64,000 bases of DNA from Tridacna crocea. Taxonomy: Eukaryota; Mollusca; Bivalvia; Cardiida; Cardiidae. The translations under genes and the position numbers were made by a program. How positions within the stretch are numbered: the stretch's first letter is position 1; every line of letters starts with the position of its first letter. Of this stretch, positions 214 through 63,583 are shown in pieces. The DNA lies in contig OX031059.1 of assembly GCA_943736015.1 (NCBI GenBank), forward strand, positions 45,209,159 to 45,273,158. Direction: 5' to 3'. The notes below the pieces were generated by a model, which was not told the DNA's origin, made no database searches, and was given only the letters and a program-made list of their open reading frames with translations.

Positions 214-430
214 TTAACCCTTTACCAAATGACAAAATCTGGGATGTGACCAAACTGAAAGCATTTGCAGACAACAAATTAAACATTGATGAAATGATGA
301 TTTCTCTCTTTGATAGAGTAGAAAACACTGAAGGAAAAGGAGAAAATACTGATTACCAGCATTTTCTCCTTTTGCAACAGTGTTTTCCGAAGACTTCTTT
401 AAAAGTTGGGATTGTGTGGGAAAGACTTAA
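214..430 (+). mobile_element. F1 foldback copy
   Basis: The A arm is on the left, with a variant stretch (AATGATGATTTCTC) also seen at 8621. The core is GGAGAAAATACTGATTACCAGC. The right terminus is decayed. Confidence 0.75.
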
Positions 431-526
431 ATATACATCAAAGAGTGTTGTTTGTGCTCAATTAAGATTTACAAAAAAAGGTCAATAACTGCAGTTCAAT
501 CCAGTACATACTTATAGTATTGAACT

Positions 527-755
527 CAATCCTTTACCAAACAATCCCCTGTTTTCATGACAATAAAGAAAAATGTTTTTGAAATCAGTGTTGGAAAATG
601 AGAAAATGAGGTCAACTAGCATTTTCTCCTTTTCCAAGAAAGTTTGCTAACCTTTTGAAGACGGGTCCGTATTTTTATGTCTCATTTGAATTTTAAACTG
701 TTGTCTGCAAATAAATTCAATATGGTCAGGGCTACAATGTATTTTGTTCAGTACA
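527..755 (-). mobile_element. F1 foldback copy, diverged
   Basis: The core hairpin and the B arm on the left are readable; the right terminus is worn. Confidence 0.6.
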
Positions 756-1056
756 GATTTACAATTTTATACACTGAAGTTTTCATGATGCTCAATTAAT
801 CCTTTAAACCCTTGGCACATCTCTTTCGCTGCTTTTTACCCAAACGGAAGATCTAAATAAGACGGAATAGAATCTGTGGCTGCATCTTGATCTTAATTTT
901 TTTGTATTGTTGGAAATATTTTGACCACAAAAAGCAAGACAGTTATTTATTTGTCTTTTACTAAGAAAAATACTCATGCATCCACTTTTAAGGATATAAT
1001 ATACTTGATCCAGGCAAGATTTCTACTCTTTTTTTTAAATAAATAACAAATTTACC

Positions 1057-1285
1057 ACATCCTGTAATCCAAACTTTTAACAACCTTGAGAAAGAAGCCG
1101 TTTGAAAACATGGTGATAAAAGGAGAAAATGCTGGTAAACCAGCATTTCCTCCTTTTGCTTCAATGTTTTCCAACCTTCCCTAACCAAATTTCAATTTTT
1201 CAGTTCAGTTACATTTATTTTGTCATCTCCAGATGCTTTCAATTTGGAAATGTCTATAATTTTGTCCTTTGGTAAAGTTTTCAAT
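1057..1285 (-). mobile_element. F1 foldback copy, old
   Basis: The core is readable (GGAGAAAATGCTGG) and the A' arm, ending TTGGTAAAG, is on the right. Confidence 0.65.
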
Positions 1286-1289
1286 CCAG

Positions 1290-1460
1290 TGGTGGATAGC
1301 TTTGAAAAACACTGTTAAAAATAAAGAGAAAATACTTTTGACAAGGATTTTCTCCTTTTCCTTCATTTTTCTACCATTTCAAAAAAGATTATGCATAAAA
1401 TGGACCCTTCTCATTTCGTTAGCTGCATTTTCTTTGAATTAGAAGCAATTTAACTTTCGT
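1290..1460. mobile_element. F1 remnant
   Basis: Only the central part is recognisable (AAAGAGAAAATACT, then GATTTTCTCCTTTTCC). Confidence 0.35.
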
Positions 1461-1534
1461 TGTCAGGTAAAAAACCCAAAAAAAACTGAAAAATAAGGAG
1501 AGCAGAGGTATTTTTCTTTATTGTATTATCCCAT

Positions 1535-1733
1535 TTATCCTAAGTTTAAAGGACCTGATAAAAAAGCTTTGCGCAAATAGGAGAAAATGCTGGTATTTAA
1601 GACTTTCTCCTTTTCTCATTTTAATCTTTCGAACATAAATCTTCCATTTAATTAATAATTACTTTGTCTTCAGAAAATGTGTTTTACTACCACAAGTGTA
1701 AAATTTTGTTGTTTGATAAATGAATTGATACTT
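1535..1733 (-). mobile_element. F1 copy, highly diverged
   Basis: Core GGAGAAAATGCTGG is followed by a mutated partner arm. Confidence 0.5.
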
Positions 1734-1928
1734 TAGTACTTAACACCCTTTTCAACATTTATTCAGCTAGATCACAGCAGCCAGTGGACCTATCCATGGG
1801 CAAACTTTACTGGAATTTCTGCTGTGCCCGAAATTATTCCCAAGCCCCAAGCCACCTTCCCACAATAACATTCTCCAACTAACTGATGTTAAGCCTTAAA
1901 GCGCTGAAACCAACTTAACTTGTTTTTG

Positions 1929-1993
1929 TGGACAGTGTAGATCAAGATCAGACCGCACAGAACATGCAGTCTAATCTTGGATCTACACTGTCC
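1929..1993. mobile_element. F2 palindrome
   Basis: GACAGTGTAGATCAAGATC is answered by its complement up to TCTACACTGTCC, giving a near-perfect hairpin of about 65 bp. This is the reference layout of family F2. Confidence 0.8.
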
Positions 1994-2079
1994 ACTATTC
2001 TGGCCAAGAAAACCTTGGTACAGCAATATTTCAGATGTTTTTCCTATTTAAAAATGTCTCTTTTATTAATTCAGCGCTT

Positions 2080-2307
2080 TAACCCATTACAACACAATCC
2101 CTACTTTTGACGCCCCTGAGAAAGAAGCCTTCAGAAAACATTGTGGGAAAAGGAGAAAATGCTGGTAACCAGCATTTTCTCCTTTTCCCACAATGTTTTC
2201 TACCCTTCACAAAACAAATTTCAAATTTTCAGTCACTTTTATTTTGTCATCTGCAAATGCTTTCAATTTGGACCAGTCTAAAATATTGTCGTTCGGTAAT
2301 GGGTTAA
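2080..2307 (-). mobile_element. F1 copy ending 34 bp before a dehydrogenase exon
   Basis: A well-preserved full-length copy with B arm left and core GGTAACC. It ends with GGTAATGGGTTAA. The 34 bp between it and the exon at 2342 must hold the branch point and acceptor unless the element supplies part of them. Confidence 0.9.
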
Positions 2308-2341
2308 GGATTGAAGGGTTATAACAACATGAACATTTCAG

Positions 2342-2554: not shown

Positions 2555-4019
2555 TTAACCCTTTACACACAATAACGACTTTAAACACCCCTGAAAGAGA
2601 AGGCTTCTGAAAACAAGAGGGCCATGATGGCCCTGTATTGCTCCACTGGCTAATTGGTTAAAACACTACAAGCCAAACAATACATTATTTCGCCAACTGG
2701 TTTCAAACTTGAGGACATACAAGATTTTTTCCATAAAATCCTACGAGAAAGTTGTGACCTGCTGAGCAAACCTAATTTTGACCTAAAAGCCATAATTACT
2801 TGAATCCTAGTGGAGGTCTACAAGATAAAGCCCCATACCAAATAATATAGGTCTAGAATGTGTGGTTATAAACAAGAAGATTTTCAAAGTTTTCTCAATA
2901 AAAGGCCGTATAAAACATGAAGCCCATGAAACATGGCTAAATTTAGTAGCCCTACTCTTTCTTATGGTTAGTAACAAGATGACTTTGACAGTTTTCACCA
3001 CAATAGCCCATGTAAAACTTGTGATCCCTGGTGTGGGGACAAACTTGACCCAAAAGCTGTAATTTGGGCCCTCCTAGTAGAGGCCCACTAGACAAAGCTA
3101 CATGCAAAATTTGGTAGCCCTTGGCCTTATAGCTAGGTACAAGTGGATTTTTAAAAATTTCCCAATATGAGCCCATGTTAAACTTGTGACCCCCAGGACA
3201 GGGCCAAATTCAAAACCAGGGCTATAATTTGGGCACCTTTGGTAGACAACCACTTGATAAAGCTAGATTCAAAATTGAGAAGCCTTACGCCTTGACCCCT
3301 GGGCTATCATTTGGGCACTCTGGGTAGAGGTCTACTAGATAAGGCTACAGGCAAAATTTGGTAGCCCTAGGCCCTATGGCTAGGTACCAGAAGGATTTTA
3401 AAGTTTTCCCTATACAAGCCCATATAAAACTTGTGACCCCTGGGGCGGGGCCAATCTTGACGCCAGGGCTATTATTTGAAGGAACTTGGTAGAGGTCCAC
3501 TAGATAAAGCTACATGCCAAATTTGGTAGCCCTAGGCCTTATGATTTCAGAGAAGAAGATTTTTAAAAATATTCAATATTTTTTGGTTATGTTGCCATGG
3601 CAACCAGATTTTTTGAAGAAATAAAATTCTTTCAAGGAAATCTGAAGAGGACCATGGCTGGATCATTTCTGTGAAGTTTCATCAAAATATGATGGGTAGT
3701 TTCAGAGAAGAAGATGTTTGAAATAAAAGTTAACGCACGGACGGACAGACGGACGCACACACACACGACAGATACCGGGCCATGACATAAGCCCGCTGGC
3801 CTTTAGCCAGTGGAGCTAAAAATTGTAGGAAAAGGAGAAAATGCTTTCTACCATTGTGGGAAAAGAAGAAAGTGCTTTAACCAGCATTTTCTCCTTTTTC
3901 CACAATGTTTTCTACCCTTCACAAAATAAATTTCAAATTTTCAGTCACTTTTCTTTTGTCGTCTGCATATGCTTTCGATTTGGACAAACTGAAAATTTTG
4001 TTGTTTGGTAATGAGTTAA
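2555..4019 (-). mobile_element. F1 copy split by a pearl-like insertion
   Basis: The left piece is about 2555-2614 (ends GAAAACA). The right piece resumes at about 3825 with TTGTAGGAAAAGGAG and ends GTAATGAGTTAA at 4019. The right piece begins with an imperfect duplication of about 30 bp (AGGAAAAGGAGAAAATGCTT and GGGAAAAGAAGAAAGTGCTT). Confidence 0.85.
2615..3824 (+). mobile_element. F7 pearl-like element with tandem core
   Basis: It opens with the inverted repeat GGGCCATGATGGCCC, then CTCCACTGGCTAA, and closes with TTAGCCAGTGGAGC, so the outer ends are complementary. The inside holds degenerate tandem units of about 163 bp (landmark AGGTCCACTAGATAAAGC near 3081, 3246, 3328 and 3491, the third spacing being a half unit). 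A simple-repeat stretch, ACGGACGGACAGACGGACG, lies just before the right end at about 3735. This is the layout of bivalve pearl elements, now usually grouped with non-autonomous Helentrons. No protein is encoded. Confidence 0.8.
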
Positions 4020-4377
4020 TCCTACTTATACTGGGATTTGGAAATGCTACTCATGGACTACTAGCTAGCACTGCAGGACACTAACTGTGCAATCATGCTT
4101 ATCATTTTTGATACTAATTGCCCACAGGCAAGTGAAATCTGAAAATGCTGTTGCCTTATGACTGTTTTGCACCAGTCTCATAAGCTGAGCATGTCACTCC
4201 ACACTTCAAGTAATGAAAACTGAACAACGTAACAAAAAGTAAAAGCAAAAAGAGAAATCACTTGTGACAAGCAAAGTTTCCTCCCACCTCTATGTTTCAC
4301 AAAGTTGTCTCGTGTGAAAATTAAAAAGTTGTCTGCGCTTGCCTGTAATGAAGCAAATTTCAATACTCTTATTTCAG

Positions 4378-4745
4378 ACTACAGACTAAGGAAAGATCCA
4401 ACTGCAGGGGGTAATTTCTATTTCATACCAGACGACACTCCTATCCAGAATACATTTGACTTTATGCGACCTTTCCTGGAAGCCAAAGGTTACAGGCTGT
4501 CCAGATTTAGAGTTCCATTTGGTCTCATTTATCCATTGTTTCTGATTGCGGAAATGGTTGTTAAAGCACTTGCTCCACTATATAAAATACATCTTCCAAC
4601 GGAGTCATACAGTATTAAGTATCTAAATATGAACTTGTATTTCAAAAATGATAGAGCTCGGCAGGAGCTTGGCTTTAAGCCCTTATTTCCATATGAGACT
4701 GCCATGACAAGAAGCTTATCATATTATAGGGATCTAAAATTGTAA
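4378..4745 (+). CDS. HSD3B: 3-beta-hydroxysteroid dehydrogenase-like, last coding exon with stop
   Basis: This is the terminal coding exon of the gene above. It follows TTATTTCAG and starts with AC, completing the split Asp codon, so the frame is continuous across an intron of about 1.85 kb. It encodes GGNFYFIPDDTPIQN, matching the GQFYYISDDTPHQS block of human HSD3B. A hydrophobic stretch (FGLIYPLFLIAEMVV) follows, as expected for the C-terminal membrane segment of the family. The end, RQELGFKPLFPYETA, matches the DLAYKPLYSWEEA region near the C terminus. The stop TAA is at 4743-4745. No AATAAA is obvious just downstream; an F1 foldback begins 6 nt after the stop, so the 3' UTR probably starts with it. 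Confidence 0.88.
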
Positions 4746-4750
4746 TCTTA

Positions 4751-4979
4751 TTAACCCTTTACTAAACGACAAAATTTTGTACTAGTCCAAATTGAAAGCA
4801 TTTGCAGACGAAAAAATAATTGTGAATCGAAACTTGAATCAGATTTGGGAAGGGTGAAAAAACATTGTGGGAAAAGGAGAAAATGCTGGTTGCCAGCATT
4901 TTCTCCTTTTCCCAAGATGTTTTCTAAAGGCTTTTTTCTCAGGGTCATCAAAAGTTGGGATTGTGCGGTAAAGGGTTAA
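4751..4979 (+). mobile_element. F1 copy 6 nt after the dehydrogenase stop
   Basis: Full length, with TTAA at both ends and the A arm left. It starts in the first bases of the 3' UTR. The family A arm often carries AATAAA, but here that site reads AATAAT. Confidence 0.9.
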
Positions 4980-8620: not shown

Positions 8621-8837
8621 TTAACCCTTGACCATACAACAAATTTTTGGACTGGACCAAATTCAAAACATCTGCAGGCAACAAATTAAATGTAAGTAAT
8701 ATGATGATTTCTGACTGATCGGGTAGAAAATATTGTGAAAAACGGAGAAAATGCTGGTTATTCCTTTTCCCACAGTGTTTTCTATAGGTTTCTTTCTTAG
8801 GGTCTTCGAAAGTCAGGATTGTGTGGTAAAGAGTTAA
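8621..8837 (+). mobile_element. F1 copy, left member of an abutting pair
   Basis: The A arm has the ATGATGATTTCTGA variant; the right half of the core is partly lost. Its right TTAA (8834-8837) is also the left TTAA of the next copy. Confidence 0.75.
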
Positions 8838-9063
8838 CCCTTTACCTGATATGCCAATTTGAAGCTCTTCCATATCAGCAGCAAATAAAGATATGATATC
8901 AAAAATATGGACAAATGAGGATATAAATACCTGACAGAGTGGAAAATATTGTGGGAAAAGGAGAAATTGCTCATTGCGAGCAATGTCTCCTTTTCCTACA
9001 ATGTTTTCAAAAGCTGTCTGTTGTTGATATGTCAAAATGAGTATCTATGGAGTAAAGGGTTAA
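8834..9063. mobile_element. F1b copy, right member of an abutting pair
   Basis: Core GAAATTGCTCATTGCGAGC. The arms differ from F1 (ends ATGAGTATCTATGGAGTAAAG), as in the copies at 21548, 24624 and 60510. Confidence 0.8.
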
Positions 9064-11990: not shown

Positions 11991-12219
11991 TTAACTCTTT
12001 ACCACAAAAGTCCCGACTTTCAATGACCGTAAGAGAGAAAGCTTTTGAAAACATTATGGAAAAAGAGGAAAATGCTGATAACCAAATTTTCTTCTTTTTC
12101 CATAATGTTTTTTACCCTTCCCAAAACTAATTTCAATTTTTGATTGATATTTGATTTATCATCTGCAAATGCTTTTATATTCAACCAGTCTAAAATTTGA
12201 TCCTTTAGTAAAAAGTTAA
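11991..12219 (-). mobile_element. F1 copy, left member of an abutting pair
   Basis: Full length. TTAA at 12216-12219 is shared with the next copy. Confidence 0.85.
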
Positions 12220-12449
12220 CCCTTTACAACACAATCATGACTTTCAATAACCCTGAGAAAGAAAGCTTTTGAAAACATTGTGGGAAAAGGAGAAAATGCT
12301 GGTGACCGGCATTTTCTCCTATTATCACAGTGTTTTCTACCTGTCCCAAATCGAATTTCAGCTTTTGAGTCACATTCATTTTGTTGTCTGCAAATGCTTT
12401 CAATTTGGACTATGGTAGTCTTATATTCTGTTGTTTGGTAAAAACTTAA
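12216..12449 (-). mobile_element. F1 copy ending 9 bp from STN1 exon 1 donor
   Basis: Core GCTGGTGACCGGC. On the STN1 strand the intron begins GTGGGTGTC and the element's TTAA follows at once. Confidence 0.88.
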
Positions 12450-13556: not shown

Positions 13557-13785
13557 TTAACCCATTACCACATAATCCCTACTTTTGATGCCCCTGAGAA
13601 AGAAGCCTTTAGAAAACATTGCGGGAAAAGGAGAAAATGCTGGTAACCAGCATTTTCTCCTTTTCCCACAATGTTTTCTACCCTTCACCAAACAAATTTC
13701 AAATTTTCAGTCACTTTTATTTTGTCGTCTGCCAATGCTTTCAATTTGGACCAGTCTAAAATATTGTCGTTTGGTGATGGGTTAA
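13557..13785 (-). mobile_element. F1 copy, near consensus
   Basis: Full length with TTAA at both ends; core GCTGGTAACCAGC. One of the best-preserved copies. Confidence 0.9.
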
Positions 13786-15223: not shown

Positions 15224-15385
15224 TTAACCCTTTAACTAACAAAATCCCGAGTTTCAACGATCCTGAAAACGTTGAGGGAAAAGGACCTCATTTTCGCACA
15301 ACGTTTCCAATGAAAAACGAATCCAATCGTGTGGGCCAAGTTTGCTTTGTCGTCTGCAAAGTCACGGATTTCAGTAAAGACTGAT
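15224..15385 (-). mobile_element. F1 copy, shortened and diverged
   Basis: TTAACCCTTTAAC start; the core palindrome is largely lost. Confidence 0.5.
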
Positions 15386-15528
15386 CCAAAATTTAAACTT
15401 TTTTCGTCTTGGCCGAAACTTTTTGCGTATGGTCAATTTTCTGCTTGTCGAAGGACCAGTATACCTCATGATTGAGTAGGTTTGTTAACGTAGTAGACCC
15501 CTAATAGAAAACAGCTATTTCCTCTCTT

Positions 15529-15838: not shown

Positions 15839-15905
15839 CGGACAGTGTAGATCAAGATCAGACTGCACAGAATGTGCAGTCTGATCTCGATCTACTGTCC
15901 GATAA
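15839..15905. mobile_element. F2 palindrome
   Basis: GACAGTGTAGATCAAGATC is answered to TACTGTCC; the right arm has lost a few bases. Confidence 0.8.
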
Positions 15906-16459
15906 AACGATATTTTTTCCCCAAAACATAACTTTTAAACAGCAATATTTGGCTTATTAGCATGAAATTGAAAATTTCACTCTAGTTTTTTTTAGCAGGA
16001 TAAGGGTTAAAAACAACAAATATTGTGGGCACAAAGAATGTTTGAGCGGAGTAAAAAGCGACTTTTTCCCTGGAATAATAATGAATTATAACTGACCAAT
16101 CGTCCATCTCATTTTCCAGGGTCTTCATTGAATAAATTACCGTAAGCGGTGAACGAACTGTCTTGAAAGACAGCGAATATTTGGTTCCAGTACTGAATCT
16201 TGAATGGCTGTATAGCACATGCATATTGGTAGCGTTATGTCTGTGCTCAACTTCCAAATAATGTCTCTCTGTATAGTGGGTACAAATGACTTTGTTCAAC
16301 TTCTATAGTCGAAATGCTAACTTACACATTATTCTGAATTTTAAGAGTTACTAAATTATTGGCCAAGGCATCAGCTATATCACATGGCTACTTTTGGAAG
16401 TAAATATAAATTTCGAACTGATGATGATTGGTAAATTCATATGGCTCACTAGTTACTAG

Positions 16460-18446: not shown

Positions 18447-18643
18447 GGGTTCGTATTCACCAACCAATCTTAAGAACTTTCTCTGACTTATTCTTCAAGA
18501 TTTTCAGACCCTGAAAGTAACAGAACATCTGATTGGCTAAACCAAATGGTTTAGCCAATCAGAAGTTCTGTTACTTTCTCATTGACAAAATTCTGAAGAA
18601 TAAGACTAAGAATGTTCTTAAGAATGGTTGGTGAATACGGACC
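18447..18643. mobile_element. F5 foldback, nearly complete
   Basis: Outer ends TTCGTATTCACCAACC and GGTTGGTGAATACGG; the core is a palindrome around ACCAAATGGTTTAGCC. Reference copy for F5. Confidence 0.8.
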
Positions 18644-19715: not shown

Positions 19716-19980
19716 TGTGACTCATCACGCAAAAAGGAACCATCAGGGAATTCTGTACATCAATTAGATGAAAACAGATCAACGATATAGTCCAGGTCAA
19801 TTTAGGTTGATTATTCAAAAATGATTGTATAACAAGGTGTAATGAACACTTTTCGTACAGAAAATGTCATAAAAGCGAAAAGTGTCGACTCTGGTCAGCC
19901 TGCGCAATTCGCGCAGGCTGACCAGAGTTGACACTTTTCGCAGTTCCCAGAATGTCCCTTTTTTAGCGTGATGGGTCACA
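19716..19980. mobile_element. F11 element with nested hairpin
   Basis: Ends TGTGACTCATCACGC and GCGTGATGGGTCACA. A hairpin at 19875-19941 (GCGAAAAGTGTCGACTCTGG arms, F3-like motif CAGCCTGCGC) is missing from the other copy at 51.6 kb. Confidence 0.75.
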
Positions 19981-21547: not shown

Positions 21548-21789
21548 TTAACCCTTTACTCCACAGATACTCATTTCTACGCATTGCTTGTAGGAGCCTT
21601 TGGAAAACATTGTGGCAAAAGATGAAATTGCTCGTGACGAGCAATTTCACCTTTTGCCACAATGTTTTCTATGCTATCAAAAGGTGTCATATATACATAA
21701 AAAAAAAAAAAAAAAAACAGCTTCAACCTTGCTGTTATTTAGGGTCAATGAGAGATACCATAGAAATGTCTTATGGGGTAAAGGGTTAA
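21548..21789 (+). mobile_element. F1b copy
   Basis: Core GAAATTGCTCGTGACGAGC; an A run of about 20 expands one arm near 21700. TTAA at both ends. Confidence 0.85.
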
Positions 21790-22511: not shown

Positions 22512-22985
22512 TTTTTTATTTCATGCTTTCCGGTAGGATATCGAGAAATAACAGTGAAAATATTTTTCGATCTTACTCTGGTATCACCAGTAAAAATACC
22601 GATTTTCACGTTCTTGTCGCATAGGTAAATTGCGCGTGCCCTGACAACCAGATGGGAAATATGACGTCATTTACCTTAGATTTCTCGCGCATGACGTAAT
22701 ATTGTAATGCGTTCCTATGCGGGAGGGGTACGCCACAGGGAATAACGGAAAATAACTGCACTGGATTTTTATAAAACTCCTTCCAGAAAGGGTTAAAAGC
22801 ATGAAATAAATAGAATATTTGTTTCTTTCGGCGAAAGATCGAAATATTTCATCCCGTGAACACCATCGGTAATATTTTCACTCGTGGCTGCGCCACTCGT
22901 GAAAATATTACCGATGGTGTCCACTCGATGAAATAAATTTCGATCTTTCACCGAAAAAAACAAATACCCTCTATTTCATCAACCG
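22512..22985. mobile_element. F9 composite foldback, copy 1
   Basis: A unit of about 300 bp with TATTTCATGC ... GCATGAAATA ends (22518-22812) is followed by a palindrome at 22822-22965 (GAAAGATCGAAAT arms, centre GTGGCTGCGCCAC). The same two parts lie in the opposite order at 30.0 kb, so the copies are inverted. Confidence 0.75.
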
Positions 22986-23452
22986 TCATCCGAAATTTGT
23001 AGTATGTCTGGCATGACATTTCAGAGCCGTGCCTAGAACTTGTGGAGCCCAGAACGTACTTGAATACGATAGCGTTAGTATGTGCTGTGATTGAACTGAA
23101 ATTATGTTGAAAGCGACGTAAAACATCGTTCAATTAACGAATCACCCGAAATTTAACCAATATTCCATTGCCATAAGGCGAATCCAATATCTTTGCGCTC
23201 ATCAAATTTAGATAGGAGCTCATCAAATTAGATTCGCAATATGTATGGGGAGACAAATAGAGTCGAATTTCAATTTCATATCTTGAGATACTTTTTTTTA
23301 GGGGGAGGGAATCATTATAAACGTAATGACCCAATTATATTAATGTTAACCCATAACCTTCAAAATATCCTGAAGTTTTAAGCCCGTATTAAAAACATAA
23401 ATGTTGCTGTGTGTTCAAACATATTTTATGGAGAAAAATAGATCCAGATCGG

Positions 23453-23517
23453 ACGGTGTAGATCAAAGATCAGACTGCACGTTCTGTGCAGTCTGATCTT
23501 TGATCTACACTGTCCGC
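23453..23517. mobile_element. F2 palindrome, near perfect
   Basis: GGTGTAGATCAAAGATCAG, centre GCACGTTCTGTGC. Confidence 0.85.
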
Positions 23518-24623: not shown

Positions 24624-24852
24624 TTAACCATTTACTCCATAGATACTCATTTCTACACATTTCTTGCAGGAGCCTTTGGAAAACATTGTGGCAAAAGGTG
24701 AAATTGCTCGTGACGAGCAATTTCACCTTTTGTCACAATGTTTTCTATGCTATCAAAAGGTGTCATATACACATAAGAAATTGCTTCATCCTTGCTGTAA
24801 TTTTGGGTCAATTGGAGATACCATAGAAACGCCTTATGGGGTAAAGGGTAAA
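24624..24852 (+). mobile_element. F1b copy
   Basis: Core GAAATTGCTCGTGACGAGC; clear relative of 21548. Confidence 0.85.
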
Positions 24853-26381: not shown

Positions 26382-26403
26382 AAGAAGCGAAGTATAGGAG
26401 TGT

Positions 26404-26627
26404 AACACATTACCACACAATCCCTACTTTTGACGACCCTTAAAAAAAGCCTTTAGAAAACATTGTGGGAAAAGGAGAAAATGCTGGTAACCAGCATTTT
26501 CTCCTTTTCTCACAATGTTTTCTACTCTTCACAAAACAAATTCCAAATTCAGTCACTTTTATCTTATCGTCTGCTAATACTTTTGATTTGGACAAGCCTA
26601 AAATATTTTCGTTTGGTAATGAGTTAA
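26404..26627 (-). mobile_element. F1 copy
   Basis: Core GCTGGTAACCAGC; ends GGTAATGAGTTAA; left TTAA decayed. Confidence 0.85.
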
Positions 26628-27488: not shown

Positions 27489-27751
27489 ATCAACCCTTTA
27501 CCATATGACCAAATTTTAGACTGGTCCAAAATGAAAGAACTTGCTGACGACGACAACATAAACGTAACTGAAAATATGCTTCAAGCAGGGTCGAAAACTG
27601 AAAAATTGAAATATGCTTCAAGCAGGGTCGAAAACATTGTAGGAAAAGGAGAAAATGCTGGTTACCAGCATTTTCTCCTTTTCCTACAACGTTTTCAAAA
27701 GGTTTCTATCTCAGGGTCGTAAAAACCAGGGATTGCTTGGTAAAGGGTTAA
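27489..27751 (+). mobile_element. F1 copy with internal duplication
   Basis: A segment containing TGCTTCAAGCAGGGTCG occurs twice, about 41 bp apart, in the A arm, lengthening the copy to about 263 bp. Confidence 0.85.
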
Positions 27752-28323: not shown

Positions 28324-28553
28324 TTAACTCATTACCAAACAACAATATTTTAGGCTTTTCCAAATCGAAATCATTTGCAGACAACAAAATGAAAGTGATT
28401 GAAAATTTGAAATTTGTTTTGTGAAGGGAAGAAAAGATTGTGGGAAAAGGAGAAAATGCTGGTTACCAGCATTTTCTCCTTTTCCAAAATGTTTTCTATA
28501 GGCATCTTTCTCAGGGTCGTCAAAAGTAGGGATTGTTTGATAATAGGCTAAAT
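28324..28553 (+). mobile_element. F1 copy
   Basis: Core GCTGGTTACCAGC; right terminus decayed. Confidence 0.82.
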
Positions 28554-30849: not shown

Positions 30850-31066
30850 TTAACTCATTACCAAACGATTCCTACTTTTGACGACCCTGAAAAAGAAGTC
30901 TTAAGAAGACATTGTTGGCACATGTAACCAGCATTTTGTCCTTTCCCCACAATGTTTTCTACCCTTCACAAAACAAATTTCAGGTTTTCAGTCACTTTTA
31001 TTTTGTCGTCTGCAAATTCTTTCGATTCGGACAAACCTAAAATTTTGTCGTTTGGTAATGAGTTAA
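30850..31066 (-). mobile_element. F1 copy, core left arm deleted
   Basis: Only CATGTAACCAGC remains at the core, giving 217 bp; both TTAA ends are intact. Confidence 0.82.
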
Positions 31067-31446: not shown

Positions 31447-31678
31447 GTAAACTCTTTACCAAACGACAAAATTTTAGACTGGTCCAGATTGAAAGCATTT
31501 GCAGACGACAAAATAAACATAAATCAAAAATTGAAATTTGTTTCCAGCAGGATAGAAAACACTGTGGGAAAAGGAGAAAATGCTGGTTACCAGCATTTTC
31601 TCCTTTTCCTACAATGTTTTCAAAAGGCATCTTTTCTCAAGGGTCTTAAAAACCAGGGATTGTTTGGTAAAGGGTTAA
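31447..31678 (+). mobile_element. F1 copy, near consensus
   Basis: Core GCTGGTTACCAGC; right end GGTAAAGGGTTAA. Confidence 0.88.
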
Positions 31679-33490: not shown

Positions 33491-33721
33491 TTAACCCATT
33501 ACCACACAATCCCTACACTTGACGACCCCGAGAAAGAAGCCTTTAGAAAACATTGTGGGAAAAAGAGAAAATGCTGGTAACCAGCATTTTCTCCTTTTCC
33601 CACAATGTTTTCTACCCTTCCCAAAACAAACTTCAATCTTAAAGTCACATTAATTCTGTTGCCTGCAAATGCTTTGAATTTGGATTTATCTTAAAATTTG
33701 CATTTTTTGGCAAAAAGTTAA
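33491..33721 (-). mobile_element. F1 copy
   Basis: Core GCTGGTAACCAGC; right arm of the CACATTAATTCTG type. Confidence 0.85.
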
Positions 33722-36779: not shown

Positions 36780-37002
36780 TTAATCATTCACCCCACAAAG
36801 AGATTTTATTCTTTTCCAAATACAAAACTCTTGAAGACTACTAATTAAATGTGGATTAAATGATCAAATTCGTCCTCGAAGGGTTGGAAACAGTTGGAAA
36901 AGGAGAAAATGCTGATTACCAGCATATTCTCCTTTTCCAACAACGTTTTAAACCCTTATTCCTTAGGTTTGTGAAACACGTGATTATTTGGTAAAGGGTT
37001 AA
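36780..37002 (+). mobile_element. F1 copy
   Basis: Begins 41 bp after the stop of the acidic frame; core GCTGATTACCAGC; right end GGTAAAGGGTTAA. Confidence 0.8.
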
Positions 37003-37796: not shown

Positions 37797-38755
37797 TCTC
37801 TTAAAATAATGGAAAAGATGCTCTGTAAAATAAAGGAAAAGATCACGGCAAAGTAGAGCATCTAATACTGCGCACCCGCCTCATCGTCCCAGCAAAAACA
37901 TATTGGTGCCAGCGAGCCCCGAGTATAAAATACTAACTCACAGATCGACTTCTGCGGTTCCTCACAATAATATCATAGGGGGAATTATATCACGGATTTA
38001 TTGCCTTCAAATTGAACAACCATGCAAGCCTTAGAAGTGATTGGAAACCAGCGCACGGTTCACGTAATAGACATTAGTGTCATTCATTGACGTTCACAAA
38101 GAAATGAACGCAATGATCATGTAACTTAGAAATACAAAGTTTATTGGTAACCTTTGGAAAGTGAATGAATGAAAAAAAATCTTTGTATTACTTTTTACCA
38201 GATTAAAGAGGGGAGTGTTCATAGAACATCTCACGAATTGTGAGGGAATAGATTTTTGTATTAGAAAGTATACAAGTTATGGTTTTATTCTACATTTCTT
38301 CAATACTGGATTTCATTAATATTTTGATCAAAGAATGCTGTGGCATTACCAAATGAGACGTCACTAAAAAGGTAAGGCTTTCTTTTTTATCATTATTTTT
38401 TCAGTATGCTTGGAAACGTATCTTTATTTGTTTTCATCAATTTCTTATGTTGTCATTTGCGACTGCTGCTCTTTTCCGAGATGATAAGGAACATTTCGCT
38501 GGAATACTGTCTGTCGAACAGACAGTCATTTTGCCCACAAAAAATTCCTCGAATACCACTTGTCTTTTTTTTGAAACAGCCTTACCGATATTTTTCTCTT
38601 TTCTAAAACTAAGAGACTGTGATTTATCTTAACCCTTATCCGGTTAAATGAAAAAAAAAAGAAAATAAGAAATAAATTTTTTGAACAGATAGTAAAAAAA
38701 AAATTTCAGCTATTTCAAAGGTATTTATTTTTTGGTCGGATAATATGTCTACATC
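37003..38755. other. Repeat-poor stretch, no gene recognised
   Basis: Apart from the GA microsatellite at 37753, I see no family member. The frame at 38447-38632 is short and unsupported. Confidence 0.4.
37753..37797. repeat. GA microsatellite
   Basis: About 20 GA units with one AAG interruption near the end. Confidence 0.95.
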
Positions 38756-38823
38756 GGACAATGTAGATCAAAGATCAGACTGCACGTTCTGTGCAGTCTG
38801 ATCTTGATCTACACTGTCCGCAA
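38756..38823. mobile_element. F2 palindrome, near perfect
   Basis: AATGTAGATCAAAGATCAG, centre GCACGTTCTGTGC, as at 23453. Confidence 0.85.
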
Positions 38824-39239
38824 TAGGCCATCGAATGCGCTTAGCAGGATAAGGGTTTAATATTACACTTGGTAGAAAAGTTGACTGGTGAAATACTTTT
38901 TATTTGAAGTGATTATTGCACAACTTTTAACTATTTTCGAAGTGTCGTCGTCGATATTGAAAAAGAGTTACGTATTTTTTTAGTTAATCTTTCTTGACGA
39001 AACGTTACGGACCCACTTTTCCGAAAATATGGATAAGGACCAGCCTGCACATATGTACTCTCGATCTTCGGCAATGCTCTACCTTTATCTATCCATATAT
39101 CTACTGTTAATACATCTAACGAAAATGTTTCTTTTTCTTTCTATGTTATAAAAGAAACTATAGATTGTACTATACGGTTTTTGATAGAGATTTGAGGCAT
39201 GCAGAAAATTGACAAATTGACTAATTATAGCAAAGAACT

Positions 39240-42102: not shown

Positions 42103-42332
42103 TTTACCTTTTACTAAACAATCCCTAGGTTTTACGGATCAAGGGAAGAGGCCTTCTGAAAACATAGTGGGGAAAAGGAGAAAATGCTGGTAACCAGCGT
42201 TTTCTCCTTTTCCTACAATGTTTTCTACTCTTCTAAAGTCAAGTTTTAATTTTTGAATCACGTTTATTCTGTCGTATGCCAAAGCTTTCAAATTGGACAA
42301 GTCTAAAACTTTGTCATTGGGTAAGGAGTTAA
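42103..42332 (-). mobile_element. F1 copy
   Basis: Core GCTGGTAACCAGC; ends GGTAAGGAGTTAA. Confidence 0.8.
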
Positions 42333-51216: not shown

Positions 51217-51445
51217 TTAACCCATTACCACTCAATCCCTACTTTTGACGCCCCTGAGAAGGAAGCCTTTAGAAAACATTGTGGGAAAAGGAGAAAATGC
51301 AGGTAACCAGCATTTTCTCCTTTTCCCACAATGTTTTCTACCCTTCACAAAACAAATTTCAAATTTTCAGTCACTTTTATTTTGTCGTCTGCAAACGCTT
51401 TCAATTTGGACCGGTCCAAAATTTTCTCGTGTGGTAATGAGTTAA
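51217..51445 (-). mobile_element. F1 copy, near consensus
   Basis: TTAA at both ends; core GCAGGTAACCAGC. Confidence 0.9.
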
Positions 51446-52222: not shown

Positions 52223-52451
52223 TTAACCCTTTCCCAAACAATCCCTGGCTTTTACGGGTCTGGAATAGTAGCCTTTTGAAAACATTGTGGGAAAAGGAGA
52301 AAATGCTGGTAAACAGCATTTTCTCCTTTTCCCACAATGTTTTCTACCCTATCATAGACAAAAATCATCTTTTCAGCAAGAGTTGAATTGTCGTCTGCAA
52401 ATGCTTTCAATTTGGTCTAGTCCAAAAGTTTGTCGTTTGGGAAAGGGTTAA
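52223..52451 (-). mobile_element. F1 copy
   Basis: TTAA at both ends; core GCTGGTAAACAGC. Confidence 0.88.
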
Positions 52452-53549: not shown

Positions 53550-55370
53550 CTTGAAGCCAGGAGAGGTCAGCATCAATATTTTCCAATAGATCATTGGCTT
53601 TTAATTTCAATACATTTGGTATATCTAAACAAACAAGTGAAAAAGCCGACACGTACGAGTAGAAACGTCATATACTTTACTTGACGGTTATTTGGCCTTC
53701 ATGTCGCGTTTTTAAGTCGCATGATCTTGTCCAGCAGTCTTTTTTGTCTTTTTTAACGAAATTATTCTTATTTTTTCTTCTGCTTAGATTTATTCACTTA
53801 ATGAAAAATTACAATTATTTTAAGAGTTTAAGCAAATTGCTGCCCTGGCAAATTAATGTAAGAAATATTTTCCCGATATATAGAAATAAACCACGTCTAT
53901 TTCCTGTTTCGTTTTTATACGCCCGGAGGGTCGTATTATGTTATACCCCCGGTCGTCCGTCCGTCCGTCCGTCTGTCTGTCTGTCCGTCCGTCCGTTAGC
54001 AATTTCATGTGTGCGCAACTCCTCCTACAGTTTTCATCGGAATTATTTGAAACTTGCCACAATGAATCTCCATGATATCTAGTTGTGCACCTGGGTCTTA
54101 GAATTTTGATCGCTGTTTCCGTTCCAAAATTATCTGCCCTTGATTTCTGAAATAACCAACTTTTCACTTTGAATTTTTGTTCAGGCCATAACTTCCATAC
54201 CATAAAAGGTATTAAATTGAAACTACATACACTGATAGAACACATTATGGAAAAGTGCAGTGCACAAGAACTATAACTCTGCCACTTTTATTTTTTGAGT
54301 TACAGCCCTTTGTTAATTTTCAGTTTGAATTTTTGTCCAGGCCATAACTTCTAAACTATAAAAGCTATTAACTTTGAACTTCATACACTGATAGATAACA
54401 TTATGGAGAAGTGCATCGCACATGAACCATAACTCTGCCACTTTTATTTTTTGAGTTATTGCCCTTTGTTAATTTTCAGTTTGAATTTTTGTCCAGGCCA
54501 TAACTTCCAAACTATAAAAGCTAATAACTTGCAACCTCATATAGTGATAGAACACTTTATGGAGAAGTGCATTGCACATGAAACATAACTCTGCGACCTT
54601 TATTTTTTTACTTATTGCCCTTTGTTAATTTTCAGTTTGAATTTTTGTCCAGGCCATAACTTCCAAACTATAAAAGCTAATAACTTGCAACTTCATACAC
54701 CGATAGAACACATTATGGAGAAGTGCAATGCACATGAACCATAACTCTGCGACTTTTATTTTTTTAATTATTGCCTTTTGTTAATTTTTTAGTTTGAATT
54801 TTTGTCCAGGCAATAACTCCCAAACTTTAAACCTATCATCTTGAAACTTCAAAAACTTATAGAACACATTATAAAGAAGTGCACTGCACAATAACCATAA
54901 CTCTGCCATCCTTCTTTTTTTAGTTATTGCCCTTTGTTAGTTTTCTATTTGAATTTTTGACTGGGCCATAATTTCTAAAATATAAAAGCTATGATCTTGA
55001 ACCTTTCAAAACTGATATAACACCTTGTGGAGAACAGCAATTTACAAAATTTGTAACTGTGCCACCCTTTCTTTTTTTAGTTATTGCCCTTTAATATTTT
55101 CCACATATCATGGAGATTAACTACTCTTCATTCATGGCCCTTCCATCATTTCAACTCATTTCACTGACAAGCCCCTTCGGGCGTATATGCGCCGCTTTGC
55201 GAAGCTCTTTTTTTTTTTTTTAATTGCGATTTATTTACAAAACTATGACGAAACAGACTGTGTATCAGAATAATTTCGCAAGAAAAAGTGGATTTAGACA
55301 GCAAATTCTGTGACAGTCTGCCTTTTAAACTCACCACTGTTGGAGAGGTCTGATGACCTCTCCAATTAAT
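53550..55370 (+). mobile_element. F8 element, copy 3 (split by F7)
   Basis: The left part runs to CCTGTTTCGTTTTTA at about 53916; it resumes at about 55222 with GCGATTTATTTACAAAAC and ends at the GACCTCTCCAAT region near 55370. Confidence 0.72.
53917..55210 (+). mobile_element. F7 pearl-like element inside F8
   Basis: Ends TACGCCCGGAGGG and CCCCTTCGGGCGTA are inverted repeats. A GTCCGTCC simple repeat (53960-53996) follows the left end. Then come tandem units: AACTCTGCCAC-type landmarks at 54275, 54431, 54587, 54743, 54899 and 55056, a period of 156-157 bp. No coding capacity. Confidence 0.82.
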
Positions 55371-55443: not shown

Positions 55444-55672
55444 TTAACCTATTACCACACAATCCCTACTTTTGACGGCCCTGAGAAAGAAGCCTTTTGA
55501 AAACACTGTCGGAAAAGGAGAAAATGCTGGTAACCAGCATTTTCTTCTTTTCCCACAGTGTTTTTTACCCTTCCCAGAACAAATTTCAATTTTTCAGTCA
55601 CTTTTATTTTGTCGTCTGCAAATGCTTTCAATTTGAACCTGTCTAAAATTTTGTTGTGTGGTAAAGAGTTAA
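55444..55672 (-). mobile_element. F1 copy, near consensus
   Basis: TTAA at both ends; core GCTGGTAACCAGC. Confidence 0.9.
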
Positions 55673-59524: not shown

Positions 59525-59753
59525 TTAACCCATTACCACACAATCCCTACTTTTGACGCCCCTGAGAAAGAAGCCTTTTGAAAACACTGTGGGAAAAGGA
59601 GAAAATGCTGGTAACCAGCATTTTCTCCTTTTCCCACAGTGTTTTCTTCCCTTCCCAGAACAAATTTCAATTTTTCAATCACTTTTATTTTGTCATCTGC
59701 AAATGCTTTCAATTTGGACCAGTCTAAATTTTTCTCATGTGGTAAAGGGTTAA
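59525..59753 (-). mobile_element. F1 copy, near consensus
   Basis: TTAA at both ends; core GCTGGTAACCAGC. Confidence 0.9.
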
Positions 59754-60509: not shown

Positions 60510-60738
60510 TTAACCCTTTACCCCATAAGACATTTCTATGGCAACTCTAATTGACCCTAAATAGCAGCAAGGATGAAGCCGTTTCTCATGTGTAAATGAC
60601 ACCTTTTTATAGCATAGAAAACTTTGTGACAAAAGGTGAAATTGCTCGTCACGAGCAATTTCACCCTTTGCCACAATGTTTTCAAAAGGCTCCTACAAGC
60701 AATGTGTAGAAATGAGTATCTATGGAGTAAAGGGTTAA
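60510..60738 (-). mobile_element. F1b copy
   Basis: Core GAAATTGCTCGTCACGAGC; TTAA at both ends; reverse orientation to 24624. Confidence 0.88.
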
Positions 60739-60787
60739 ATGCTTCAAGTGACTTTTTTTTTTTTTCAGAAGCATAGGCAAAGATAGG

Positions 60788-60850
60788 GACTTCTGCAGAC
60801 GGCATAGGTCAAGACCAGACTGCACAGAACATGCAGTTTGGTCTCTGATT
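60788..60850. mobile_element. F2 palindrome
   Basis: CATAGGTCAAGACCAGAC, centre GCACAGAACATGC. Confidence 0.7.
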
Positions 60851-60940
60851 TATTCGCATATTTAGACGCGCGTATAGAAACATCTTTGAGTTTCAGCGGA
60901 TCGTACGTTAAGCCGTCGAAAGAGGCTTGGTATATAAAGG

Positions 60941-61164
60941 CTTGTAACACGCTAAATGGGGCATTGGGGCAAGTGTCGTCTCGGATCAGCCTGCATTGTC
61001 CTCGCATGCTAATCCGAGACGACAATCTACGACTACATTAGATTTTGTGCAACAGTAGACTCTGCGCAGAACAGAAAATTGCATAAAAAAAACGTAAAGT
61101 ATGGTCTCGGGTCAGCCTACTTTACGTAAATAACCGAATGCCCATTTTCACATGTTGCAGGCTA
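60941..61164. mobile_element. F3 copy
   Basis: GCTTGTAACACGCTAAATGG and TTTTCACATGTTGCAGGC ends; part of the left arm is missing. Confidence 0.7.
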
Positions 61165-62236
61165 TATTCACTTGGTGCCGAAGAGTAAAAAAAAACTGGA
61201 TTAAAAAAATTATAGAGTTTTTTACCATTTCTTTTTTGAATATTAAATTAAGCCTTACAATTTGTGTTGCTCACATTTGCATGTGTTTATCGCTATAGAC
61301 AAAAATTATACTACACAGAACGAGTTGTCTGATCTTGGATGCACGTGTTCTTTCCTGACCCAACAAAACCCTTCAGAATTTGCGTGTAATGTTTTATTTT
61401 ATAACCGTTTTACTGTCTAGGCACTCCAATACAAAAAGATGTATTCTTGCACTGAATCTGGAGTATTTGCTGTATTTCAATCCTTTTTATCTATCAGCAT
61501 GCTTTTTCGGCGTAGAAGAATGATACTCACTTTTGACATACTTTTAGTAATAGGAGGAAATGAATAGTTACACATTTTGTGATTGGCAAAATATATGTCA
61601 ACTAGGCAAAAAAAGTAATGGTCACAATAGAATTTTACCAACTTTGGATAAAGGCGTTCATGACTAAAAATCACGTAATTATCGTAATAACCTACATATG
61701 TATGTGAAGTTGTACTTAATGGCCTTGCAGATGTTGAACTCCATTAAATTATCCATTATCTAAAGTACATGGATAAACTTATAGAAATGGGTATTGGCGA
61801 GTTTTCTATTTTGTTTAGTGTAAGAGACTTGATACCCGTTTTTCCTCGCGTAAAACCCAATACGAAGGGCGAAAGCAGGGTACATCTCTCTTGTCTTACA
61901 CGAAAACGGGTTGTAAAACGATTGTTTTCGTTTCACTTGTCACTATATGAGAAAAAGATGTTTTGTCTTGAATTTGTTGATTTAATTTGCATCATGAATA
62001 ACTATGCCTACCTAGTGGAACAATCGGTTTTATCGCGTTGTTAGCGAAGAAACTGAGTTTCTATTAAATTATTCCTAGTAAGAGAATGTGGTGTGGCCAA
62101 GCATTGACAATGGTGATAAAAACCTACTTTCTGGTAACGACAAATCGTCCATGTTTGAAAGGTGTTTCATCTTTGTGAAAAAAAGATGCAAATACACTTT
62201 GTTTTCTTTTTAAAGATTTCATCTTATGGTCCAAGC
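61165..62236. other. No gene recognised
   Basis: F2-like arm at 61310-61345. An imperfect foldback at about 61818-61910 (GTGTAAGAGACTTG against CTCTTGTCTTACAC) explains the frame at 61769. Confidence 0.4.
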
Positions 62237-62490
62237 GGTGTCTTCCCAGTTCGCCCAATTCCATTTCGCCCATTCCCGTTTCGCCCTTTGCCGTCTTGTC
62301 CCCTACCCATTTTGCTCTTTTTCATTTTGCCCCGTTGCCACCTCGCCCAATCATCTTTTCGCCCAATTACCGTTTCGCACTTTTGCCAATTCACCCTTTG
62401 CCGATTTGCCCAATGCCATCTCGCCCCTTCACCACTTCGCCCAATGCCATTTTGCCCAGTTATCAGCTCGCCCCATCACCATTTTGGCCC
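62237..62490 (+). repeat. TTTCGCCC minisatellite, left arm
   Basis: About 14 degenerate units of roughly 18 bp (TTTCGCCCAATGCCA type). The same motif recurs inverted from 62630. Confidence 0.85.
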
Positions 62491-62629
62491 TTACATGTTG
62501 TAGCCTACACCCTGTTCTTTTACCACATGACTATAATAATAACCCTCAAAATAAGGTTCATAAATTGAGGAATTAACTTATTAGAGGACTTTTCACTAGT
62601 TTTGGACCCAGATATCAGAAAAATGGCGT

Positions 62630-62872
62630 TCAGGCGAAATGGGAAGGGGCCTTGTGGGAAAAGGGCGAAATGGGAAAGTTGGGCGAGATGGCGTCTGGGC
62701 GAAAAGAAAAGTGGGCGAAAATGAATTTGGGCAAAACGGGAAAAGGGCAGGACAGATATTTGGCGAAATGGGAAAAGGGCGAAGTTGGAAAGGGCGAAAA
62801 AAGAGTGGGCGAAACGGGAAAAATTCTGGCGTAATGGGAATGGGGGAAACGGGATTGGGCGAACTGGGAATA
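62630..62872 (-). repeat. GGGCGAAA minisatellite, inverted right arm
   Basis: Units like GGGCGAAATGGGAAA are complementary in motif to the left arm; the spacer of about 140 bp is ordinary DNA. Confidence 0.85.
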
Positions 62873-63351
62873 AACCGGTCCAAACAGACCTTTTTTTAAA
62901 CATGACTAAAAAAAAAAAGATATTTCCGAAACATTGCAGAATCTCGACTTTCATTTAACGTTAAACAAGAGAAGTAATCATTGCTCAGTAACACACATTA
63001 CGAGAGCCTCCTCATTCTTCAACCTTATTGAAAATCCTGATTTCAACCATATGCTGAACAATTGAAAAACTAATTTCAGAACTGTTTTCATCAGTTCTCT
63101 TCGTATTATACTGTAAACGAATTTAAATATTCATATCTTAGTGCCTCTTTCGCCGTTTATCGTTTTCTAAAGATACTTTTTGTTTCTTGATGTGCCAAAT
63201 TTGGCAAATGTTGCACATTCAATTAATCTAAGTAAAGCAAGACAGAGATAGGACAGCAGCTCTAAGCCTGCCAATGCTTCTATGACATATCAGAAACAGG
63301 CATACTTCTGAACTTGCTCGTTGCTGGTCTTAGTTTCCATGGTGGTCGTAT
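62873..63351. other. No gene recognised
   Basis: Nothing seen. Confidence 0.35.
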
Positions 63352-63583
63352 TTAACTCTTTACCAAACGACTAAATTATGAATCGATCCAAATTGAAAAC
63401 ATTTGCAAATGGCAAAATAAATATGACTGAAAAAGTTGAAATTTGGTTTGGGAAGGGTAGAAAACATTGTGGGAAAAGGAGAAAATGCTGGTTACCAGCA
63501 TTTACCCCATTTTCCACGATGTTTTCAAAACGCTGAAAGTCTTCAGGGTCGTGTAAACAAGGAACTGTTTGGTAAAGAGTTAA
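63352..63583 (+). mobile_element. F1 copy
   Basis: Core GCTGGTTACCAGC; ends GGTAAAGAGTTAA. Confidence 0.87.

What the first reader, a model, noticed from the sequence alone, without database searches (positions are those of the whole stretch)
214..63583. A TTAA-flanked foldback family fills much of the window and looks piggyBac-mobilised
About 58 copies share TTAACCCTTTACC...GGTAAAGGGTTAA ends. TTAA duplication and a CCC-first terminus are hallmarks of piggyBac transposons (established), yet the rest is a long hairpin with no coding capacity. The density is extreme: in the first 15 kb the element is over a third of the DNA.
Basis: partly seen in the sequence, partly recalled or inferred. Interest (0 to 1): 0.75.

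Follow-up and report, generated by a model that had tools for sequence, protein, structure and literature searches.

The report
Mobile hairpin repeat crowding a genome
A short DNA element without genes of its own, which jumps into TTAA sites and carries a hairpin at its core, has been copied roughly half a million times or more in this genome, and the hairpin seems to have been preserved in the copies that spread.

Summary
A model of the element finds 67 copies in the window, 33 nearly full length. They cover 19.6% of the window and 40% of the first 15 kb; the reversed window gives none. Genome-wide, exact counts and ten sampled regions (92 kb) suggest about 570,000-650,000 copies and roughly 10% of 1.05 Gb.

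The piggyBac reading is largely supported. Ends start CCC or CTC inside TTAA, and related empty sites show one TTAA turned into two; at the best site eight of nine empty relatives match exactly. The genome holds many piggyBac transposase matches. But none of 42 transposase loci read (ends clear in 12) was seen to carry this element's terminal repeat, so the enzyme is not identified.

"Long hairpin" is only partly right. The typical 229-bp copy has short terminal repeats, asymmetric flanks and one 67-bp palindrome (33-bp arms) at a fixed off-centre place.

New here: between two subfamilies whose flanks differ at 58% of sites, the stem changed mainly by paired, compensating substitutions. On a tree, stem changes are depleted most on internal branches. 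Copies with close relatives decay almost only one-sidedly. So the hairpin was probably kept by selection among copies that transposed, not repaired after insertion. What it does is unknown.

The parts
2079..2307 (+). Reference copy of the young subfamily, 229 bp including TTAA at both ends
   Evidence: 242.5 bits; 2.6% from young-subfamily consensus
2079..2082 (.). Left TTAA (target duplication)
   Evidence: sequence; duplication shown at other copies
2134..2166 (+). Left arm of the core hairpin (model 56-88)
   Evidence: 34-nt arm, 100% complementary, 1 nt between arms; model pairs
2168..2200 (+). Right arm of the core hairpin (model 90-122)
2304..2307 (.). Right TTAA
   Evidence: sequence
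2555..4019 (+). One copy apparently split by a roughly 1.2-kb unrelated stretch (model 1-62 at 2555-2615, 60-229 at 3851-4019)
214..429 (-). Copy, near full length
4751..4979 (-). Copy, full length
8621..8837 (-). Copy sharing its TTAA (8834-8837) with the next copy
8834..9063 (-). Copy of a divergent subfamily; shares TTAA with the previous copy
11991..12219 (+). Copy sharing its TTAA (12216-12219) with the next copy
12216..12449 (+). Copy sharing TTAA with the previous copy
13557..13785 (+). Young-subfamily copy
15224..15396 (+). Copy with both ends but no recognisable stem
21548..21789 (+). Copy of subfamily C1 (unrelated flanks, compensated hairpin)
24624..24852 (+). Copy of subfamily C1
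25503..25731 (-). Young-subfamily copy
26403..26627 (+). Young-subfamily copy
27492..27751 (-). Copy
28324..28550 (-). Copy
30850..31066 (+). Copy
31450..31678 (-). Copy
33491..33721 (+). Copy
36780..37002 (-). Copy
42104..42332 (+). Copy
51217..51445 (+). Young-subfamily copy
52223..52451 (+). Copy
55444..55672 (+). Young-subfamily copy
59525..59753 (+). Young-subfamily copy
60510..60738 (-). Copy of subfamily C1
63352..63583 (-). Copy at the right edge of the finding (this list gives 25 of the 33 near-full-length copies plus two partial ones; one search lists all 67)

Best explanation
A clan of non-autonomous piggyBac-type miniature elements (MITEs), typically 229 bp. Shown: TTAA target with duplication; C-first ends; genome-wide presence at several hundred thousand copies; an internal 33-bp-arm hairpin at a fixed place that changes by compensated substitutions between subfamilies. 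Inferred: they are cut and pasted in trans by one or more piggyBac-type transposases of this genome, or by one now lost. Also inferred: the hairpin is kept by selection at the level of the element, because copies that lose it leave fewer descendants, while each inserted copy decays without repair. The likeliest role, not tested, is a cis-acting aid to amplification: a transposase-bridging or internal binding structure, or a cruciform that couples excision to replication and gap repair.
For: TTAA duplication: L031:844-1070 filled; nine relatives empty, eight with exactly one TTAA at 96-98% identity. L004 (relatives in L041, L039 and L045, 78-82%) and L060 (relative L012, 88%) likewise. Two pairs of window copies share one TTAA. 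74,484 of 87,384 strict ends carry TTAA. Exact counts: 133,483 ends, control 48; 191,599 perfect 31-nt palindromes, control 0; 659,282 single arms, control 1. piggyBac transposase domain: 118 matches, some of them pieces of one gene, many without internal stops; clear TTAACCC end pairs in 12 loci. Hairpin, 58 thinned copies: 87.9% of cells paired against 85.6% shuffled; 37 cells changed on both sides against 14.2; covariation score 0.128 against 0.096, 0 of 500 shuffles as high, 0.047-0.063 with slid partners. Subfamily C1 against the young one: flanks 71/122 mismatched; stem 5 of 33 pairs changed, 4 Watson-Crick to Watson-Crick, 1 wobble, 0 broken. Trees of 108 copies: internal-branch changes per column 1.1-1.2 in the stem against 3.3-4.0 in flanks; terminal 6.8-6.9 against 11.4-12.4; Fisher p 6e-4 and 1.7e-6. 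In 58 copies with near relatives, 136 of 144 changed pairs are one-sided, 3 are compensated doubles (about 1.1 expected) and 5 are other doubles.
Against: No transposase with matching terminal repeats in 42 loci, of which only 12 had clear end pairs; 76 of 118 matches were not read, and matches are a lower bound. Only 7 of 50 joined-flank queries found an empty site; of these 3 show a clean single TTAA (for L060 in one of two relatives), 1 shows TTTA in the relatives (L033), and 3 are unclear (L041:9288-9516 has a relative without TTAA). The number of stem pairs with a change on both sides, 15, is above shuffles (10.0; 9 of 500 as high) but not above slid partners (8-16). In the young subfamily the excess of private over shared stem changes has p 0.025 and falls to 0.16 with CpG/TpG/CpA masked; private changes themselves are somewhat rarer in the stem (odds ratio 0.67, p 0.085). 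Terminal branches also carry 20-21 compensated pairs; I read these as unsampled source history, because one search finds 26 of 29 compensated doubles in copies without near relatives. Stem similarity is partly ascertained by the search model. The role of the hairpin is untested.
Confidence: 0.8

Rival explanations
1. Ordinary piggyBac MITE whose palindrome is kept symmetric by mutation, not selection: template switching or arm-to-arm gene conversion during replication turns imperfect palindromes into perfect ones.
For: Compensated changes are often transversion swaps with few intermediates; near-perfect palindromes are known substrates for template switching (recalled). Terminal branches carry compensated pairs too.
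Against: It predicts correction after insertion too, but 136 of 144 changed pairs in copies with near relatives are one-sided, and rare changes have 3 compensated partners against 3.08 expected. It does not by itself explain fewer substitutions in the stem.
Confidence: 0.15
2. A TTAA element of another superfamily (Kolobok or Sola3) rather than piggyBac.
For: These also duplicate TTAA (Kolobok: PMC9587614 passages; Sola3 recalled).
Against: Ends start C, not RR. piggyBac elements with TTAACCC ends are present in this genome. Kolobok and Sola transposases were not searched for.
Confidence: 0.06
3. The hairpin acts as RNA: copies in introns form double-stranded RNA or small RNAs that let the element evade or feed host silencing, and that is what is selected.
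For: The stem is long and stable in RNA folding (-80.5, -97.7 and -102.9 kcal/mol for three whole consensus elements); in the window, copies lie around an open frame weakly resembling 3-beta-HSD.
Against: No Rfam family matches in the window at gathering score, though a new RNA would not be in Rfam. No expression data were available.
Confidence: 0.12
4. The hairpin is a passenger: it was perfect when each subfamily was founded, and its apparent conservation is ascertainment by a model that needs it.
For: The stem gives the profile much of its score; of 153 right-end hits reaching the stem side, 15 have no stem beside them, and 3 of those have a left end too.
Against: Substitutions compensate across subfamilies, which a passenger would not do; within the young subfamily, where copies are easy to find whatever their stem, shared stem variants are rare (4 in 67 columns against 38 in 122 flank columns).
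Confidence: 0.12

Closest known systems
CMITE families of Acropora corals (PMC2872659)
   Same: TTAA-duplicating piggyBac-type MITEs with CCCTTT-like ends whose internal region is better conserved than the terminal repeats; several families share one core; one family tied to a piggyBac element
   Different: CMITEs are about 100 bp and about 1,600 copies in A. millepora; a compensating hairpin is not described in the sections I read; here the element is 229 bp and hundreds of thousands of copies. Sequence relation not tested
T2-MITE / Kolobok of Xenopus (PMC6004289, passages)
   Same: TTAA-targeting, long-lived, prevalent MITE
   Different: Ends AGGRR, not CCC; different superfamily
REPINs of bacteria (PMC3116915, passages)
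   Same: Very short mobile unit with a hairpin whose two sides change in a compensating way and which is read as the replicating unit
   Different: Bacterial, linked to a RAYT tyrosine transposase; an analogy, not a relative
Foldback elements / snap-back MITEs (recalled)
   Same: Long intramolecular hairpin in a non-coding mobile element
   Different: There the terminal repeats themselves make the hairpin; here a separate internal palindrome does, with short terminal repeats
piggyBac families A-D of this genome (A: L014-L019, L023; B: L020; C: L021, L022, L032; D: L011)
   Same: TTAACCC ends, same target sequence; near-identical copies suggest recent activity
   Different: Terminal repeats CCCTTTATATAC, CCCTTTCAGYGC, CCCTAGTCATGC or CCCTTGTCATGC, CCCATTTATGCC; they share only the first 4-7 bases with the MITE ends

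Membership tests
piggyBac-type MITE | TTAA target duplicated on insertion | tested here: met
   Related empty sites, clean at L031, L004, L060; 85% of strict ends carry TTAA genome-wide; TTAA within 3 bases of both ends in 53 of 101 full-length copies, chance about 5% per end
piggyBac-type MITE | 12-19 bp terminal repeats with CC[C/T]T-like start (as put in PMC2872659) | tested here: met
   CCC or CTC then [A/T]TTACCA at both ends; met loosely, since CCCA, CTCT and CTCA starts are common
piggyBac-type MITE | Short, cannot code for a transposase | tested here: met
   Modal length 229 bp, at most 76 codons. Pfam was run on 10 of 72 window ORFs of 85 aa or more; the only hit was 3Beta_HSD just under its cut-off
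piggyBac-type MITE | Autonomous piggyBac with the same terminal repeats in the genome | tested here: inconclusive
   0 of 42 loci read, ends clear in 12; 76 of 118 matches not read
Kolobok MITE | TTAA target | tested here: met
   as in the first row
Kolobok MITE | 5'-RR ... YY-3' termini | tested here: not met
   Termini are 5'-CCC/CTC; rule from a PMC9587614 passage
Foldback element | Long terminal inverted repeats that make up most of the element | tested here: not met
   In the main subfamily the hairpin is internal, 67 of 229 bp, and the ends pair over a short stretch; subfamily C1 has longer matching ends
CMITE | Shares the coral internal sequence | not tested
   The coral sequence was not in the text I read

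The most novel reading that the evidence does not exclude
The internal hairpin is an independently selected cis-acting amplification module of piggyBac-type MITEs. It outlasts both flanks and terminal repeats, works through its base pairing rather than its letters, and has driven one non-autonomous clan to about a tenth of a 1.05-Gb genome, possibly by letting different piggyBac transposases use it. A second, unrelated hairpin core with 17,208 perfect genome copies, seen next to TTAA-CCC ends in a few copies, would be a parallel case.
Probability: 0.3. Interest if true: 0.78.

Novelty: new variant of a known kind. Interest (0 to 1): 0.6.

Why it matters
How MITEs reach enormous copy numbers without coding for anything is an open question. 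This family offers very large numbers of natural variants of one short element, with a recent insertion inside a piggyBac copy that can be dated against its relatives, and an internal structure that appears to have been under selection mainly in copies that went on to spread. That makes the question 'what, besides the ends, makes a MITE successful' directly testable by counting and by a plasmid assay. At roughly 10% of the genome the clan should also matter for introns, gene regulation and assembly in its host (inference).

Tried and rejected
Autonomous partner: 30 loci from the Pfam PF13843 search and 12 more degenerate ones were checked for end pairs. 12 show clear TTAACCC end pairs of four families; L052 gives an 11/16 pair like family D and L038 a 10/16 pair that I did not count; the other 28 have no clear ends. 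None of the pairs has the MITE ends. A 13/16 MITE-like pair around L052 proved to be two MITE copies flanking the transposase. The L025-L029/L034/L037 repeat looked at first as if a MITE formed its right end; L025-L029 and L034 are alike to the edges of the stretch I hold, so its true ends are unknown and I drop the claim.

A full-consensus DNA search of the genome returned nothing; the tool says it skips very common words, so it is not evidence of absence. Rfam gave no match at gathering score. Full-text search for end and arm strings listed six papers, unrelated by title.

'Post-insertion repair of the hairpin' was considered and is not favoured. The private-change test uses rare bases only and has little power for common C-to-T pairs, so I lean. 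The Lincoln-Petersen estimate of 567,000 assumes independent arms; in the 143-copy sample arms were not independent (26 both intact against 15.7 expected), so it is a low figure. The ten sampled regions were at round coordinates that I chose, not drawn at random. The forward and reverse counts are printed as exactly equal (37,242 each), which is odd for a pattern that is not a palindrome; I take the total as printed.

Rows dropped before counts: L008 and part of L006 (overlap with L007); L025, L026, L028, L029, L034, L037 (near copies of L027) from then on; hits not spanning the hairpin or scoring 60 bits or less for the hairpin tests (143 of 239 kept; 117, 108 or 86 of them where more complete rows were needed); rows within 10% of another (58 of 91 kept).

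Papers: of PMC2872659 the outline with abstract, Results part 1 of 2, and section 15; passages only of PMC9587614, PMC6004289, PMC3116915, PMC10294476, PMC8905726; all others only in search listings. That I know of no printed MITE clan of this size or with a compensating hairpin rests on the searches alone, in an open-access library.

Mended on re-check: the empty sites of L031 are eight exact and one altered of nine, not nine exact; changed pairs total 144, not 142; the shared end bases with families A-D are 4-7.


Full report
WHAT IS THERE. The window lies in a 1.05-Gb genome of 31 contigs, window = C4:45,209,159-45,273,158. The reported ends exist: with up to one mismatch TTAACCCTTTACC occurs 21 times and its complement 18 times, against none in the reversed window. 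A profile from 21 paired copies (modal length 229 bp counting both TTAA) finds 67 copies in the window, 33 near full length and 18 of those on the + strand. They cover 19.6% of the window and 40.0% of the first 15 kb; the reversed window gives none.

SCALE. The exact 13-base end occurs 133,483 times genome-wide against 48 for the reversed pattern. The inner 31 bases of the palindrome occur perfectly 191,599 times (control 0), and one 15-base arm 659,282 times (control 1). Treating the arms as two independent marks gives 567,000 copies, a low figure because decay is uneven. Ten regions that I picked at round coordinates, 92 kb in all, hold 57 copies and 10.3% coverage, i.e. about 620 per Mb or 650,000 copies and 108 Mb; a bootstrap over the ten regions gives 6.8-13.3%. 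Regions range from 0 to 15.6%, so the first 15 kb of the window is unusually dense.

ANATOMY. From the young-subfamily consensus (23 copies, 2.2-10.5% from it): TTAA; end CCCATTACCACACAAT; an asymmetric left flank to position 55; left arm 56-88; one base; right arm 90-122; an asymmetric right flank; end complementary to CTCATTACCAAACGAC; TTAA. Subfamily C1 (7 of 97 full-length copies; window 21548, 24624, 60510) has largely unrelated flanks but the same length and the same place for the hairpin, and its ends pair over a longer stretch.

TARGET DUPLICATION. Joining the flanks of 50 copies with TTAA at both ends and comparing them with the loci held gave 7 copies with a related empty site. The best is L031:844-1070...CGATTGGC-TTAA-[element]-TTAA-ACCAACCC... 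in a piggyBac family A copy, against ...CGATTGGC-TTAA-ACCAACCC... in L015. Nine relatives are empty; eight (L013-L019 and L033, 96-98% identical over 204 bases) have exactly that single TTAA, and L023 (93.7%) is altered there. L033, the closest relative of L031 (98.8% over 2.2 kb), is empty, so this insertion is younger than about 1.2% divergence. L004 is clean against copies 78-82% alike, L060 against L012 (88%) but not L009, which reads TTTGA. L033 has its own copy at TTAA where relatives read TTTA; three more are unclear. Two pairs of window copies share one TTAA (8834-8837, 12216-12219), as when a second copy enters the TTAA of the first. Of 87,384 exact CCCWTTACCACACAATCCC, 74,484 (85%) are preceded by TTAA.

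ENZYME. The piggyBac transposase domain (PF13843) gives 118 matches, some of them pieces of one gene and many without internal stops. In 42 loci read, end pairs beginning CCC were clear in 12: CCCTTTATATAC (L014-L019, L023), CCCTTTCAGYGC (L020), CCCTAGTCATGC/CCCTTGTCATGC (L021, L022, L032), CCCATTTATGCC (L011). L052 (11/16, like L011) and L038 (10/16) are possible further cases. None carries the MITE's CCC[A/T]TTACCA. So piggyBac-type mobilisation is supported by target, ends and company, but the source is not shown. Kolobok is disfavoured by its 5'-RR ends (PMC9587614 passage).

THE HAIRPIN. In 143 copies spanning it, both sides match more often within a copy (85.0%) than after swapping right arms between copies (81.6%, sd 0.3%), but no more than after swapping with the nearest relative (86.6%), so the coupling belongs to subfamilies. 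On 58 thinned copies the pair counts are: standard pairs 87.9% against 85.6% shuffled; cells changed on both sides 37 against 14.2; covariation 0.128 against 0.096 with 0 of 500 shuffles as high; slid partners give 0.047-0.063. One measure is weaker: 15 pairs have a change on both sides, against 10.0 shuffled (9 of 500 as high) and 8-16 with slid partners. C1 differs from the young consensus at 71 of 122 flank sites but at only 5 of 33 stem pairs: four are swaps to another Watson-Crick pair, one a wobble, none broken. A third subfamily consensus (3 copies) has 3 pairs changed, two Watson-Crick and one wobble.

WHEN IS IT KEPT? On trees built from half the flank columns plus the ends (108 copies), stem changes per column are 1.1-1.2 on internal branches against 3.3-4.0 in the flank columns held out, and 6.8-6.9 against 11.4-12.4 on terminal branches. 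The stronger depletion on internal branches has Fisher p 6e-4 and 1.7e-6 for the two halves. True pairs change together on a branch 43 times against about 21 with shuffled pairing (maximum 36 and 31 of 200). Copies with near relatives (58) show 136 one-sided changes, 3 compensated doubles (about 1.1 expected) and 5 other doubles; the 50 copies without near relatives hold 26 of the 29 compensated doubles (about 6.3 expected). Inside the young subfamily, private:shared variants are 26:4 in the stem and 70:38 in flanks (p 0.025; 16:3 and 46:25, p 0.16, with CpG/TpG/CpA masked). The reading is that inserted copies decay nearly freely and lineages that keep transposing keep the hairpin. Limits: the model that finds copies uses the stem; the stem is also less variable on terminal branches and among private changes (odds ratio 0.67, p 0.085); and 'terminal' contains unsampled history because 108 of several hundred thousand copies were used.

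WHAT IT WORKS LIKE. CMITEs of corals (PMC2872659; abstract, Results part 1 and section 15 read) are the nearest precedent: piggyBac-type ends, TTAA, and an internal region better conserved than the ends, for which the authors suggest a role in transposition. REPINs (PMC3116915 passages) are a bacterial analogue with compensating hairpins. The step from 'conserved' to 'what it does' is inference: internal transposase binding or synapsis, replication-coupled copy gain, or RNA.

A SECOND CORE. Another palindrome (AGATCAGACTGCAC-5 nt-complement) has 17,208 perfect copies. 20 copies lie in the loci held, of which window:16010 and L043:8638 show TTAA-CCCTTATCCTGCTA at one end; window 38629-38860 has similar ends on both sides with TTTAA at one. 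Most of the 20 show no such ends. This hints that hairpin cores recur in TTAA elements here; it was not tested further.

VERDICT. The new part is the structure-preserving evolution of an internal hairpin in an extremely abundant MITE. I found no earlier report in eight open-library searches, which cannot exclude one elsewhere.

Noticed in passing
window 38629-38860, 15845-16010, 1896-2082, 23450-23516; L043:8428-8638: A second palindromic core (GTGTAGATCAAGATCAGACTGCAC...) with 17,208 perfect genome copies; a few copies end TTAA-CCCTTATCCTGCTA, so possibly another hairpin-bearing TTAA MITE family.
   Followed up: partly
window 2612-3850: A roughly 1.2-kb stretch beginning near GGGCCATGATGGCCC, with about two internal 247-bp tandem units, sits inside a MITE copy.
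   Followed up: no
window 4233-4742: Open frame weakly resembling 3-beta hydroxysteroid dehydrogenase (21.2 bits, cut-off 22); MITE copies lie around it, perhaps in introns.
   Followed up: partly
L025-L029, L034, L037 (C15, C3, C5, C9, C10, C18, C17): A repeat of at least 4.1 kb, 96-99.9% identical between places, with a piggyBac-type transposase frame and several MITE copies in and beside it; its ends lie beyond the sequence held.
   Followed up: partly
G000 C13:4.48-4.61 Mb; C8:56.71-56.76 Mb; C8:50.41-50.44 Mb: Local clusters of piggyBac-domain matches, several with stops, which may be arrays rather than scattered transposons.
   Followed up: no
window 18513-18578; L042:8828-8893, 4549-4614; window 22845-22935, 30013-30133, 19875-19941, 34892-34956; L046:7783-7903: Further unrelated long palindromes; L046:7712-7974 has matching ends next to TTAA (12 of 14 bases). 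12 of 70 strong palindromes in 335 kb are outside the main family; a shuffled window had none.
   Followed up: partly
window 54161-55092: Six tandem copies of a 156-bp unit, 85% matches.
   Followed up: no
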